Of a stretch of DNA of 64,000 nt, positions 16,147 through 20,850 are shown piece after piece. The position numbers and the translations under genes are program-made. Below the pieces are notes generated by a model. It saw only the letters and a program-made list of their open reading frames with translations, had not been told where the DNA came from and searched no databases. Numbering within the stretch: position 1 is the stretch's first letter; the number at the start of each line of letters is the position of its first letter. The stretch is from Hypericibacter adhaerens (GTDB lineage: Bacteria; Pseudomonadota; Alphaproteobacteria; Dongiales; Dongiaceae), in assembly GCF_008728835.1 (NCBI RefSeq), contig NZ_CP042582.1, positions 4,514,217 through 4,578,216 of the forward strand, given 5' to 3'.

Positions 16147-16932
16147 TCACGGATACCAGGCCGCGGCGCAAACGTCGGCGTGGAACCGCTCCAGGATCTG
16201 CGGCTTGCGCACCGTCTCGTGCTGTCGCTGGCATTCGCTCTTGCAGTCGTCGCTGCCGCAGCCGGCCTGGCAGCGCTGCGCTTCGGCGATACTCTTGCCG
16301 AACACCCGCTCGTAGGACATGCGCTGCATGTCCGAGCAGTCGATCGCCGGCGCGGCGTTCGCCGTCGGCGGTGCGCCTGCCGGCTGAGGCGGGGGCGGGG
16401 GCGGTTCCGCCGGCGCCGCGGCCTTGTCCGGCGGCGGGGCCGCGGCCGTGTCCGGTTCGATCGTGGCCGGCTCCGGCACGGGCGGCTCGACCGGCGCCAC
16501 GGCCGAAGCTTCCGTCGGCGCGGGCAGGGGCTTGACCGAGGGGATCGGCGCCTCGGGCACCTCGACCGCCAGCGGCTGGCTCAGGGTGGGCGGCGACGGC
16601 AGCTCGGTTCCGGCCGGCAGGGCCGGCGCCGGCGTGACGGCCCCCTCGGGCTGGGCCGCCAGCTCGCGCAGCGTTGCATCACGCGCCTGCCAGTCGAGGC
16701 TGGCCGGGCAGTCGCCATAGTCGAACCAGTTCCCCACCTCGCAGCGGTACATGCGGCCGCGATAGCAGAGCAGCGTGCCATGCGCCCATTGATTGATGCG
16801 CGTGATGCCGTTCTCGACCTCGACCAGCGGCCGCGTCAGATAAGGGCATTCGGACTGGGCCCGCGCGATCGGAACGCCCGCCACCAGCAGAGCGAGCGCC
16901 CAGAGCGGGGCGAACGCGAGACGATATCCCAT
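16147..16932 (-). CDS. Secreted Pro/Ala-rich, Cys-containing protein of unknown function
   Basis: A 261-residue protein with a Sec signal peptide (MGYRLAFAPLWALALLVAGVPIARA, likely cleaved before QSECP). The mature part has a short Cys-containing N-terminal domain (ECPYLTRP, TLLCYRGRMYRCEVGNW, GDCPAS), then about 100 residues rich in Pro and Ala (an extended linker), then a Cys-rich C-terminus (CQAGCGSDDCKSECQRQ). The cysteines suggest disulfides in the periplasm or outside. The ATG at 16932 has GAGG upstream. It lies downstream of the flagellin-protease gene on the same strand, about 180 bp away. I do not recognise the family. Confidence 0.65.
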   Translation of the reverse strand: MGYRLAFAPLWALALLVAGVPIARAQSECPYLTRPLVEVENGITRINQWAHGTLLCYRGRMYRCEVGNWFDYGDCPASLDWQARDATLRELAAQPEGAVTPAPALPAGTELPSPPTLSQPLAVEVPEAPIPSVKPLPAPTEASAVAPVEPPVPEPATIEPDTAAAPPPDKAAAPAEPPPPPPQPAGAPPTANAAPAIDCSDMQRMSYERVFGKSIAEAQRCQAGCGSDDCKSECQRQHETVRKPQILERFHADVCAAAWYP

Positions 16933-17114: not shown

Positions 17115-19196
17115 CTACTGCAGCAGGTGGAGCAGGTCGCGCTGGTGCATGTTGCCCTGCACCGACATCGAGACGCCGACCTGCACCAGGACCTGGCGCG
17201 AGGTGGCCAGGATCATCTCCGACGCCATGTCGAGATCGAGCAGCGCGCTGCGCGCGGCCTCGCTGTTCTCGACCGTGGTGGCGATGTTGGCGGCGGCGAA
17301 ATCGAGCCGGTTGAGCGAGGCCCCCAGCCCGGCGCGCGCCTTGACCAGCCGGTCCATCGCGGTGTCGAGTGCGCTGATGGCGCTCTCCGCGTTGGCCGCG
17401 CTGTCGACCTTGGTCAGATGCAGGCCCAGATTGTAGCTGCTGATCGCATCGAGATCGACGCCGATGCGGTCCGAGCTGCCGGTGTCGGTGGCGACCTTGA
17501 TCGAGTAGTCGCGGCTGGTCGGCGCCGCGATGCTGCTATAGACCGAGGTCGCATCGAGGATCGCGTTGGTCACCAGGCCCGAGCCGCCATTGCTGACGGT
17601 GAGGTCGCCGCCGGAGCCCACGCCGATATCGATCTGGATCTGCGGCAGGCTGGCGCGGGCGAGATCGATGATGCCCTGGCCCCAGGTGCTGTCGGCGCCG
17701 ACCTGGCCCATGTCGCGGGCGGTCGAGGTCAGGAGGTTGGTGATCTCCTTGCCGCTCAGGTTCGGGAACAGGCTTTCCAGCACCGCCGCGGCGCCGGCGA
17801 CGAGCGGCGAGGCCATCGAGGTGCCGGAGAGATAGGCGAGCGTGTTGCCGACATAGGTCGAGAGGATGTCGACGCCGGGCGCATCGACCGTCGCCACCTT
17901 GGCGACGCCGGCGCGGTTCGAGAAGCTCGCCATGTGATCGAGATAGTCGGTGGCGCCCACCGCCAGCATCGAGCCGTCGGCATTGGGATCGATCGCATAC
18001 TGGGCGGGCCAGGCCGGATCGGAGAGGGCCGAGTTGCCGGAGGCCGCGATCACCACCACGCCCGCCGCCACGGCTGCGTCGATCGCCGCGTTCTCGGCGG
18101 CGCTCGGGAACAGCCCGCCCAGGCTCATATTGATGATCTTGGCGCCCTGGGCCACCGCATAGGTGATGGCGGCCGCCACGTCGTTGGGATCGATCCCGCC
18201 GCCGCTCGCCGTCGCCACGACCTTCACGGGGAGGATCTGCGCCTGGAAGGCGACGCCCTGGGTGCCGATGCCGTCATTGACCGCGGCGATGATGCCGGCC
18301 ACATGCGTGCCGTGGCCGCCGACGGCCGCGTTGTCGTCATCCGGGTTGGCGTCGCCGTCGGCGATGTCGGTGCCCGACAGCAAGTTGGCGGTGAGCTGGC
18401 TGTGGGTGGTGTCGACGCCGCTGTCGATCACCGCCACGGTGATGCCGTTGCCGGCGGCGTTGGTGCCGTAGGCCGCGGCGCGGGCATAGGCGGTCGAGGC
18501 GTTGATGATGCCGAGCCCGCCCGAGTTGCGGTATTCCGCATCCTCGAAGGTGGTGGCGCTGCCCGCGCCCGCGATGGTGCCGAGCGCGTTGCCGTCCTGG
18601 TCCGAGACGCTGACGATCAGCCGGTCGGTCGCGGCCCCCGATCCATCGTTCTCGTAGGTGACGCGGCCGAGATCGAGATCGGTCTGGGTGAAGCTGTCGC
18701 CCAGCCCCAGCGCCACGCCGTTGAGCTTCACCACGCCGTGCTGGGCGTCGCCGCGCAGGGTATAGACCGCGCCCGTATAACCCACGAGCGTCTGGCCGTT
18801 GAACTCGGTGGCGCCGGAGATGCGGTCGATCTCGTCGCGCAGGGCCACATATTCGGTGTTGATCATCGCCCGCTCGGCCGAGGAGAGCTGGCCCGAGGAG
18901 GACTGGACGGCGAGCGACTTCATCCGGTCGATGATGGTGCCGACCTTCGCCATGGCGCCGTCGGCGATCTGCACCATCGAGGCCGCCTGGCCGGCATTCA
19001 CGCCCGCCTGGCGCAGCGCCTGGACCTTCGCGTTGATGCGCGAGCCGACGGCCATCGCCGCGGCATCGTCCTTGGCGCTGACGACGCGCGAGCCCGCCGA
19101 AAGCCGGGCGATCGAGCTGGTGAGAGCCGCGTCGCTCGTCGCCAATTGGCGGTTCGCGATCTGGGACGCAGCGTTGAACGTGACGGACAGGGCCAT
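17115..19196 (-). CDS. Flagellin with an inserted subtilisin-type (S8) serine protease domain
   Basis: A 693-residue chimera. Residues 1-165 are a flagellin N-terminus (MALSVTFNAASQIANRQL, then SRINAKVQALRQA and MKSLAVQSS). Residues 600-693 are a flagellin C-terminus (ALDTAMDRLVKARAGLGA, ANIATTVENSEAARSALLDLDMA, ending LLHLLQ). Between them, about 235-515, is a complete subtilase: Asp258 (VAVIDSGVD), His295 (GGHGTHVAG), oxyanion Asn388 (ASGNS) and Ser460 (LSGTSMASP), with an Asp-rich loop near 281-288 that could bind calcium. There is no signal peptide and no I9 propeptide, which fits export by the flagellar type III system. The ATG at 19196 fits the canonical MALSV flagellin start. A filament carrying many surface proteases is inferred. 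No other flagellar gene is adjacent. Confidence 0.93.
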   Translation of the reverse strand: MALSVTFNAASQIANRQLATSDAALTSSIARLSAGSRVVSAKDDAAAMAVGSRINAKVQALRQAGVNAGQAASMVQIADGAMAKVGTIIDRMKSLAVQSSSGQLSSAERAMINTEYVALRDEIDRISGATEFNGQTLVGYTGAVYTLRGDAQHGVVKLNGVALGLGDSFTQTDLDLGRVTYENDGSGAATDRLIVSVSDQDGNALGTIAGAGSATTFEDAEYRNSGGLGIINASTAYARAAAYGTNAAGNGITVAVIDSGVDTTHSQLTANLLSGTDIADGDANPDDDNAAVGGHGTHVAGIIAAVNDGIGTQGVAFQAQILPVKVVATASGGGIDPNDVAAAITYAVAQGAKIINMSLGGLFPSAAENAAIDAAVAAGVVVIAASGNSALSDPAWPAQYAIDPNADGSMLAVGATDYLDHMASFSNRAGVAKVATVDAPGVDILSTYVGNTLAYLSGTSMASPLVAGAAAVLESLFPNLSGKEITNLLTSTARDMGQVGADSTWGQGIIDLARASLPQIQIDIGVGSGGDLTVSNGGSGLVTNAILDATSVYSSIAAPTSRDYSIKVATDTGSSDRIGVDLDAISSYNLGLHLTKVDSAANAESAISALDTAMDRLVKARAGLGASLNRLDFAAANIATTVENSEAARSALLDLDMASEMILATSRQVLVQVGVSMSVQGNMHQRDLLHLLQ

Positions 19197-19410
19197 GGCG
19201 GCCGCCCCCAACTACTTGTCAGAGTGTCGAACCCGAAGAACCGGTGCCTACATGGCCCGGGGTTCGAGCAAATTAGGCGCAAGTTCCCAACAAAGGATTG
19301 ACGCTTGTCCATCTGGCGCGCCGCGTCTTCAGACAATGGTAGGCGGTGCTGCGGAAGAATTTGTGGTTAATTTCCCGTCCATCACAATCGCCGCTGGGAA
19401 CGCCGCCTCG

Positions 19411-20850
19411 ATGCCTGTCCTGTTCTCCACCCACACTCAGCCCGGCTATATGGACCCGCCGGTCCTGTCGCCGGGCCAGGTGGTCTGCGGGCCCGAGCGG
19501 CCCGATCGCGATTATCGCGGGCTGGTGACGAGCCTGAAGACGCCGCTTGGCCGCTACGATCTGGCGCAACAGATCGAGCGGCTGCCGGCGGAGCAGCGCC
19601 CCGAGCTGGTGGTGGTGCGCGCCGATGCGACGCGGCGCAACCGTCCGGTCAATCTCGCCGGCATCAAGGCCCGCAAGGTGCTCCTGGTCGGCGACACCCA
19701 TCACCGCCGGGCCCCCATCGCCGGCCTCATCGATTACGCGAAGAGCGAGCCGTTCGACCTCGTGCTGCTGGACTATACCCGCCAGCATGCGCATTTCTTC
19801 GTCGAGGCGGGGGTGCGGAACCTGCACTGGCTGCCGGGCTTCGCCGTCGATCCGCCGCCGCCGGCCCTGGCGCGGAGGCCGCAGAAAGGCCTGATCTTCG
19901 TCGGCATGCTCGAGGCCCAGCATGCCCAGCGCCGGCGCATGATCGAGGCCCTGATGGCCGCCGGGCTGAAGCCGGAGCTGTTCCACGCCTTCGGCGCCCA
20001 GGCGCCGCAGCTCCACGCGGCCGCCACCGTCTCCTTCAATTGCAGCCTCAATGGCGATCTGAACCAGCGCGTGATCGAGGTGCCGGCCGCCGGCGGCTGC
20101 CTGCTCACCGACCGGCTGGCGCCGCAGGCGGGGCTCGAGATCCTGTTCGAGCCGGGCCGCGATCTCGAGCTCTATGACGGGCCCGAGGAGCTGGTCGAAC
20201 GCGCCCGGGCGCTGCTCGCCGATCCCGCACGGGCCGCCGCGATCGCCGCGGCGGGCCTGGCGCGCTATCGCGAGGCCTATGCGCCCGCGGCGACGCAGGC
20301 CGAGTTCGCGGCGCTGCTGGAAGGGCGCGGCGGCCGCGCCGCGCATGCCCTGTCGCGGGAGCCCCGGGCGGCCAAGCCCGCGCTTGCCGAACCGGAGCGG
20401 CTGGCGGCGCGGCTCGCGCTCTACCAGGCGGTGCAGGAGCTGCACCGGCGGGAGCCGGCGCTCGCGATGCTGCTCGCGGGCGAGGCCGATCCCGACAGCG
20501 CCGCCGATCTGGTCGATCTGCCGCGGCTGCGAGTATCGGTCGAGCCCGGGCTGCCGGCGCCGGCGCAGGCCGCGATCGAGCGGCTCATCTTGCCCGGACA
20601 AGTGACCGTCGCCCCGGCGCAGCAGCGGCGCTGGGACATCCTGGCGGCCTCGCCCGCCTGGCTCGCGGCGGCCGGCGGTGCCGCCTTCCTCGCCCGAGCC
20701 TGCCGGGCGCTGGCGCTGAGCGAGCGGCCCGACGGCGCCGCGACGGCGATGCTCGCGAGCGCCGGCTTCACGCCCTGGCGCGACGAGCCGGCGCTGCATC
20801 TCTCGCCCGAGCTCGCCGCGACGCTCAACGCCAGCGATCAGGCGCGGTGA
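19411..20850 (+). CDS. CgeB-like glycosyltransferase
   Basis: A 479-residue protein. Residues about 50-160 form a Rossmann-like half (ELVVVRADATRRNRP, KVLLVGDTHHR, FDLVLLDY). Residues about 165-310 match the Glyco_trans_1_2 region of CgeB-type transferases: GLIFVGMLE, VSFNCSLNGDLNQRVIEVPAAGGCLLTD, LFEPGRDLELYDGPEEL. The last 170 residues are Ala-rich and unassigned. It is divergent from the flagellin-protease gene across 214 bp. CgeB-like enzymes are frequent in flagellin- or surface-glycan loci, so modification of the flagellin is a reasonable inference. The ATG at 19411 has GGGAA upstream. Confidence 0.75.
   Translation: MPVLFSTHTQPGYMDPPVLSPGQVVCGPERPDRDYRGLVTSLKTPLGRYDLAQQIERLPAEQRPELVVVRADATRRNRPVNLAGIKARKVLLVGDTHHRRAPIAGLIDYAKSEPFDLVLLDYTRQHAHFFVEAGVRNLHWLPGFAVDPPPPALARRPQKGLIFVGMLEAQHAQRRRMIEALMAAGLKPELFHAFGAQAPQLHAAATVSFNCSLNGDLNQRVIEVPAAGGCLLTDRLAPQAGLEILFEPGRDLELYDGPEELVERARALLADPARAAAIAAAGLARYREAYAPAATQAEFAALLEGRGGRAAHALSREPRAAKPALAEPERLAARLALYQAVQELHRREPALAMLLAGEADPDSAADLVDLPRLRVSVEPGLPAPAQAAIERLILPGQVTVAPAQQRRWDILAASPAWLAAAGGAAFLARACRALALSERPDGAATAMLASAGFTPWRDEPALHLSPELAATLNASDQAR

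What the first reader, a model, noticed from the sequence alone, without database searches (positions are those of the whole stretch)
17115..19196. Flagellin carrying a complete subtilisin (S8) protease in its variable region
One 693-residue frame has flagellin D0/D1 segments at both ends and a full S8 protease between them, with Asp258, His295, Asn388 and Ser460 all in canonical motifs. Known proteolytic flagellins (flagellinolysins) carry a zinc HExxH metallopeptidase, so a serine-protease version would be a convergent and perhaps undescribed type of enzymatic filament. There is no signal peptide or I9 propeptide, consistent with flagellar export of an active or self-folding enzyme. A filament could display many protease sites for degrading host or soil proteins, or for modifying itself.
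Basis: partly seen in the sequence, partly recalled or inferred. Interest (0 to 1): 0.96.

Follow-up and report, generated by a model that had tools for sequence, protein, structure and literature searches.

The report
Flagellin with built-in subtilisin-type protease
A bacterium carries a flagellum protein with a complete, apparently intact protein-cutting enzyme of the subtilisin family built into its outer part, which could turn the swimming filament into a protease-covered surface by a different chemistry from the one studied case.

Summary
Window 17115-19196 (minus strand) is one 693-aa frame: Flagellin_N 7-137, a Cadherin_3-like segment 144-201, full Peptidase_S8 249-508, Flagellin_C 608-692. 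Asp258, His295, Asn388 and Ser460 sit in canonical motifs. It is no assembly join: full-length relatives with the same domain order occur in a second species of the genus (86% identity) and in two genomes of another alphaproteobacterial family (50-52%), all four keeping those residues. All parts but a short linker are under purifying selection. In the window's genome it is the only S8 match. A model gives a subtilisin fold (Z about 42). Best reading: a serine-protease flagellin, exported unfolded by the flagellar apparatus, folding outside without an I9 propeptide and displayed on the filament, probably as a minor subunit, or else released. Export, assembly and activity are inferred. It works like flagellinolysin but is not one: no HExxH. 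Six paper searches showed no S8 flagellin, but the full domain list of the 2017 survey could not be read. New variant of a known kind.

The parts
17115..19196 (-). gene for the S8-protease flagellin, 693 aa plus stop
   Evidence: ORF list; Pfam; relatives
18777..19196 (-). flagellin D0/D1 N-terminal part, residues 1-140
   Evidence: Flagellin_N 7-137, 2.1e-29; 60-62% identical to the genome's two ordinary flagellins over residues 1-138
18561..18776 (-). Cadherin_3-like connecting segment, residues 141-212 (Pfam match 144-201)
   Evidence: 28.8 bits against cut-off 25.5; same place in 3 relatives at 21.5-24.4 bits, below cut-off; no match in the 2 ordinary flagellins; low confidence in the model
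17637..18560 (-). S8 subtilase domain, residues 213-520; Asp258, His295, Asn388, Ser460
   Evidence: Peptidase_S8 249-508, 5e-50; motifs; model; fold matches
17517..17636 (-). variable linker, residues 521-560
   Evidence: 65% identity and dN/dS 0.82 to the sister species, against 0.12-0.22 in the other parts
17118..17516 (-). flagellin D1/D0 C-terminal part, residues 561-693
   Evidence: Flagellin_C 608-692; matches the two ordinary flagellins from residue 556 or 560
19411..20847 (+). divergently transcribed glycosyltransferase-like neighbour (context, not shown to be part of the system)
   Evidence: Glyco_trans_1_2 7.3e-21; same neighbour in the sister species

Best explanation
It is a proteolytic flagellin with a serine-protease (S8 subtilase) domain in place of the ordinary outer domain. 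Steps. (1) Shown by sequence: flagellin ends on both sides, complete S8 domain with catalytic Asp, His, Ser and oxyanion Asn between them. (2) Inferred: the flagellar type III apparatus exports it unfolded, so it does not harm the cytoplasm. (3) Inferred: outside, the S8 domain folds without an I9 propeptide, as its free-standing relatives presumably do. (4) Inferred: it co-assembles with the two ordinary flagellins, probably as a minor subunit, giving many protease sites along the filament that cut proteins near the cell. (5) Inferred from the trees: one fusion of an alphaproteobacterial S8 domain, plus a Cadherin_3-like segment, into a flagellin gene, later present in two separated lineages.
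For: Domain order and motifs. Same architecture in G001, G394 and G230. dN/dS between the two genus members 0.12 (N), 0.22 (Cadherin_3-like), 0.22 (S8), 0.20 (C), 0.22 overall; between G394 and G230 0.24 overall. S8 parts of the 4 chimeras form one clade in a tree of 58 rows (4 chimeras, 54 others; quick method), SH-aLRT 96. Only S8 match in G000 and in G394; in G230 only the flagellin and the end of a second copy; G001 has two others. Two ordinary flagellins in the genome, FlhA within 20 kb of them. Model: residues 231-520 at block means of 80-97, long flagellin helices; subtilisins at Z about 42. Precedent: metallopeptidase flagellin assembles and is active in filaments (PMC5595980: section 6 and passages seen).
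Against: The gene lies about 0.6 Mb from the flagellar cluster, and its upstream region lacks a clear form of the sigma54-like site of the ordinary flagellins (G000 10 of 13, reached by 49 of 500 shuffles; G001 9 of 13, 282 of 500; G394 and G230 8 of 13; ordinary flagellins 11 of 13, reached by 4-5 of 500), so co-expression is unproved. The C-terminal D0 end deviates in the genus pair (GNMHQRD where the ordinary flagellin reads ANQMPQD); in G230 (ANRMPQN) and G394 (AQKMPQN) it is near-ordinary. FlhA was not found in G394, a fragmented assembly of 96% completeness. The flagellin parts place the four chimeras as two separate pairs; one clade is not rejected (AU p 0.309). Across the two families dN/dS is high: 0.57-0.70 overall, 0.62-0.85 in the Cadherin_3-like and S8 parts. 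The gene is rare: 2 of 17 genomes of the family.
Confidence: 0.6

Rival explanations
1. The flagellin ends serve mainly as an export tag: the protein leaves through the flagellar channel and is released as a soluble protease rather than built into the filament.
For: Separate locus and no clear sigma54-like site shared with the ordinary flagellins; divergent D0 C-terminus in the genus pair; secreted non-filament flagellin-like proteins are known elsewhere (recalled, not looked up).
Against: Export alone should not need both flagellin halves (inference), yet both are strongly conserved in the genus pair (dN/dS 0.12 and 0.20), and G230 and G394 keep a near-ordinary C-terminal end.
Confidence: 0.22
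2. The protease acts on the filament itself (trimming or shedding flagellin outer domains) rather than on outside proteins.
For: An active protease anchored among flagellins would have them as nearest substrates; the fast-evolving linker at 521-560 (dN/dS 0.82) could be a cleavage region.
Against: No cleavage evidence; a linker is expected to evolve fast anyway.
Confidence: 0.08
3. The S8 domain is only a structural or adhesive outer domain without catalysis.
For: Outer domains of flagellins are often non-enzymatic (general knowledge); PLVAG replaces PHVAG after the catalytic Ser in the genus pair.
Against: All four catalytic and oxyanion residues are kept in 4 of 4 proteins that are down to about 50% identical; PHVAG is present in G394 and G230.
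Confidence: 0.06
4. A relic or rarely used gene, or an assembly artefact.
For: Absent from 15 of 17 genomes of the family.
Against: Same domain order and junctions in four genomes, single-contig genome, dN/dS about 0.22, intact frames.
Confidence: 0.04

Closest known systems
Flagellinolysin (metallopeptidase flagellin; Eckhard et al. 2017, PMC5595980; Hylemonella gracilis 2020, PMC7643111)
   Same: Protease domain in the flagellin outer region between flagellin ends; expected to give an enzymatic filament.
   Different: Serine (S8) instead of zinc gluzincin chemistry; no HExxH; unrelated fold, hence a separate origin (inference); found here in Alphaproteobacteria, while PMC5595980 names Firmicutes, Beta- and Gammaproteobacteria as the commonest; activity not yet measured.
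Free-standing alphaproteobacterial S8 proteins (perhaps autotransporters: the EprS model aligns with their S8 region, but no barrel domain was found by Pfam)
   Same: Nearest S8 sequences, about 35-45% identical, aligning from residue 213-220 on, before the catalytic Asp; no I9 match in 6 of 6.
   Different: The six scanned are frames of 786-830 aa with one S8 domain and no other Pfam match; here the S8 domain sits inside a flagellin and would leave by the flagellar route.
Flagellins with other enzyme-like inserts (Peptidase_M26, sialidase) listed in PMC5595980 Table 1
   Same: Enzyme-annotated domain in the flagellin outer region.
   Different: S8 is not among the ten domains listed there; the full list of 61 is in a supplement I could not read.

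Membership tests
Flagellin (FliC family) | Flagellin_N and Flagellin_C at the two ends, above Pfam cut-off | tested here: met
   102.8 and 51.5 bits against 26.6 and 23
Flagellin (FliC family) | Assembles into the filament | not testable with these tools
   needs filament preparation
Peptidase family S8 (subtilase) | Asp, His, Ser triad and oxyanion Asn in the family motifs | tested here: met
   Asp258, His295, Ser460, Asn388; kept in 4 of 4 homologues
Peptidase family S8 (subtilase) | Subtilisin fold | tested here: met
   predicted model against solved subtilisins, Z about 42, rmsd 1.5 A over 266 residues; the input alignment held S8 rows, so this is a consistency check on a prediction
Peptidase family S8 (subtilase) | Proteolytic activity | not testable with these tools
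   needs assay
Flagellinolysin | Gluzincin HExxH zinc site in the outer region | tested here: not met
   no HExxH in 4 of 4 chimeras; no metallopeptidase profile among the Pfam hits
Flagellinolysin | Protease domain between the flagellin ends | tested here: met
   works like one, is not a member
Classical secreted subtilisins | Signal peptide and I9 propeptide | tested here: not met
   no I9 profile; no strongly hydrophobic N-terminus, but no signal-peptide program was run

The most novel reading that the evidence does not exclude
Enzymatic flagella arose independently at least twice with different catalytic chemistry: in these Alphaproteobacteria a subtilase was moved onto the flagellar filament, in some species as the genome's only S8 protease, so that extracellular serine proteolysis is tied to flagellar export and filament assembly.
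Probability: 0.55. Interest if true: 0.85.

Novelty: new variant of a known kind. Interest (0 to 1): 0.77.

Why it matters
If active, it would be a serine-protease filament, showing that the flagellin outer region has captured proteases of unrelated chemistry more than once. It makes several questions directly testable: how a subtilase folds after passing a type III channel without an I9 propeptide, whether a filament can serve both swimming and digestion, and whether flagella can carry enzymes as a general platform, in nature and for engineering.

Tried and rejected
Assembly error or two joined genes: rejected by three relatives with the same architecture. The long antisense frame over the gene (17127-19301 +) was taken as a high-GC by-product. 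Metallopeptidase (flagellinolysin) membership: rejected, no HExxH.

Plasmid collection by tblastn: 341 records with a match, 0 where one place covers 80% of the query; 25 rows were listed, and the top one (H1, Acetoanaerobium) is a flagellin frame of 546 aa in which I saw no S8 motif. Viral contigs: no relative. Genome-contig scan: 27 of 27 loci hold flagellins or S8 proteins apart, no chimera; its exact peptide patterns would miss 50% relatives. Three large flagellin frames (735-751 aa) of another alphaproteobacterium, scanned for a similar insert, match no Pfam family between their ends (3 of 3); two or more further large ones there were not scanned.

Sigma54 and sigma28 motifs upstream (consensus strings recalled; plain shuffles): no convincing site for the chimera. 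Glycosyltransferase as a conserved partner: not supported; found in 3 of 61 relatives, one of them without the chimera, and not in the held stretches beside the chimera in G394 and G230, where the gene lies near a contig end, so that one side is unseen.

In the trees I used only ORFs over 150 aa with N hits over 100 and C hits over 90 residues, or S8 hits over 200 residues; duplicates and the cut copy L003 were dropped; 32 flagellin and 58 S8 rows remained. The structure alignment used 26 of the 30 homologous stretches listed, plus the window protein; L049, one L054 stretch, L058 and L060 were left out by choice. The flagellin and Cadherin_3-like parts were not tested by the fold search: all rows shown were subtilisins and close relatives.

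Papers: six searches for such a protein listed none that I recognised as describing an S8 flagellin; listed papers were seen as listing and start of abstract, except PMC5595980 (section 6 and passages), and PMC7643111, PMC7018530, PMC8306008 and PMC8442362 (term searches). Supplements could not be read.

Full report
What is there. On the minus strand, 17115-19196 holds one frame of 693 residues plus stop. Pfam gives, in order, Flagellin_N (7-137), Cadherin_3 (144-201, 28.8 bits against 25.5), Peptidase_S8 (249-508, complete profile, 5e-50) and Flagellin_C (608-692). The catalytic Asp258, His295 and Ser460 and the oxyanion Asn388 sit in VIDSGVD, GHGTHVAG, SGTSMAS and AASGN. There are no cysteines and no HExxH. 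The S8 region matches solved subtilisins (a Savinase chain, 2e-42).

It is a real gene, not a join. The genome is one 5.87 Mb contig; the window is its bases 4514217-4578216, and the genome's three other Flagellin_N matches are two ordinary flagellins at 3.906 and 3.911 Mb and a weaker one at 3.89 Mb, probably FlgL (not checked). A second species of the genus has the whole protein at 86% identity (2 of 61 relatives searched, own included), in the same neighbourhood. Two genomes of another family of the class, G394 and G230, have it at 50-52% over 1-691 and 1-693, in a neighbourhood that looks shared with each other but not with the window as far as their contigs reach; G230 also has the end of a second copy, cut by the contig end. 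All four give the same four Pfam domains in the same order, though Cadherin_3 falls below its cut-off in three.

Selection. Between the genus members, dN/dS (Nei-Gojobori, own script) is 0.12 for the N part, 0.22 Cadherin_3-like, 0.22 S8, 0.82 linker, 0.20 C part, 0.22 overall; between G394 and G230 0.24 overall. So all domains, not just the flagellin ends, are kept within each pair. Across the two families the values are much higher (0.57-0.70 overall; S8 0.63-0.80; linker up to 1.0). At that distance, with only about half the residues shared and strongly uneven dS, I do not lean on them, but they do not by themselves show constraint.

Spread. Genomes with the chimera: 2 of 17 in the family, which is also all held of the order; 2 of 11 in G394's family, also its order; 3 of 385 across the class; 2 of 389 in a draw of near-complete genomes of the class; 1 of 398 across the phylum, the window's own. 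These samples overlap, the three wide ones scored only 2-3 candidates per genome, and the list was cut, so these are lower bounds. Other phyla were not surveyed by whole genome.

Origin. The S8 parts of the four form one clade (SH-aLRT 96, quick method) beside 15 free-standing alphaproteobacterial S8 proteins. Six of those or their kin were scanned: frames of 786-830 aa with S8 as the only Pfam match, 0 of 6 with an I9 propeptide. NCBIfam's best models for them, as for the window's protein, are mycosin and then, among others, the autotransporter protease EprS, all far below cut-off, so calling them autotransporters would be a guess. The flagellin parts fall as two pairs on long branches; one clade is not rejected (AU p 0.309). 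With the shared Cadherin_3-like segment and junctions, one fusion is likeliest, but two are not excluded.

Genome context. In G000 and G394 the flagellin is the only S8 match; in G230 only it and its partial copy; G001 has two further ones. FlhA, the export gate, is present in G000, G001 and G230 and was not found in G394, a fragmented assembly of 96% completeness. Ordinary flagellins have sigma54-like sites (3 of 3 upstream regions tested: 11 of 13 consensus positions, reached by 4-5 of 500 shuffles); the chimera has no clear one that is kept. The divergent glycosyltransferase-like gene (19411-20847 +) is found in 3 of 61 relatives; as it was not seen beside the chimera in G394 or G230 I do not count it in.

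Structure. AlphaFold2 with 27 rows: mean pLDDT 75.7, pTM 0.55; residues 231-520 at block means of 80-97; helices 2-33, 41-100, 106-133 and 600-692, with the first 40 residues at 52-60; the Cadherin_3-like segment and linker mostly low. Savinase: Z 42.8, rmsd 1.5 A over 266 residues, model 224-517. Since S8 rows were in the alignment, this shows consistency, not independent proof; placement of the protease relative to the filament core is not resolved.

How it most likely works. Flagellin export keeps the chain unfolded until outside (established knowledge of flagellar export, not tested here). The S8 domain then folds without an I9 helper. Filament subunits bearing it would display a protease. 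Given two ordinary flagellins and a different promoter region, I expect a minor or conditionally expressed subunit. Export, assembly and activity are inferred.

Compared with what is known. PMC5595980 (section 6 and passages read) examined 26,587 flagellins, found 61 domains in the outer region, lists ten in Table 1 (gluzincin, M26 and sialidase among them, no S8), and reports proteolytic filaments for the metallopeptidase type. The terms 'subtilisin', 's08' and 'peptidase s8' do not occur in its text, but its supplementary list was not readable. Six paper searches showed no report of an S8 flagellin. So: works like flagellinolysin, fails its defining zinc site, meets the S8 and flagellin sequence criteria; a new variant of proteolytic flagellin.

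Noticed in passing
19411-20847 (+): Glycosyltransferase-like gene (Glyco_trans_1_2) divergent from the flagellin gene, rare among relatives (3 of 61) but at the same place in the sister species; a link to flagellin glycosylation is only a thought.
   Followed up: partly
about 16150-16932 (-): Gene downstream on the same strand as the flagellin: Ala/Pro-rich protein with a signal-peptide-like start (by eye) and no Pfam match; a counterpart lies at the same place in the sister species.
   Followed up: no
L123 (CP131057.1 55000-72000): A plasmid of a rhizosphere Hyphomicrobiales bacterium carries three large flagellin frames (735-751 aa) within about 10 kb whose big outer regions match no Pfam family.
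   Followed up: partly
L098:7117-7923: G230 carries the end of a second S8 flagellin, nearly identical to the first in the S8 stretch held: a recent duplication or a variant pair.
   Followed up: no
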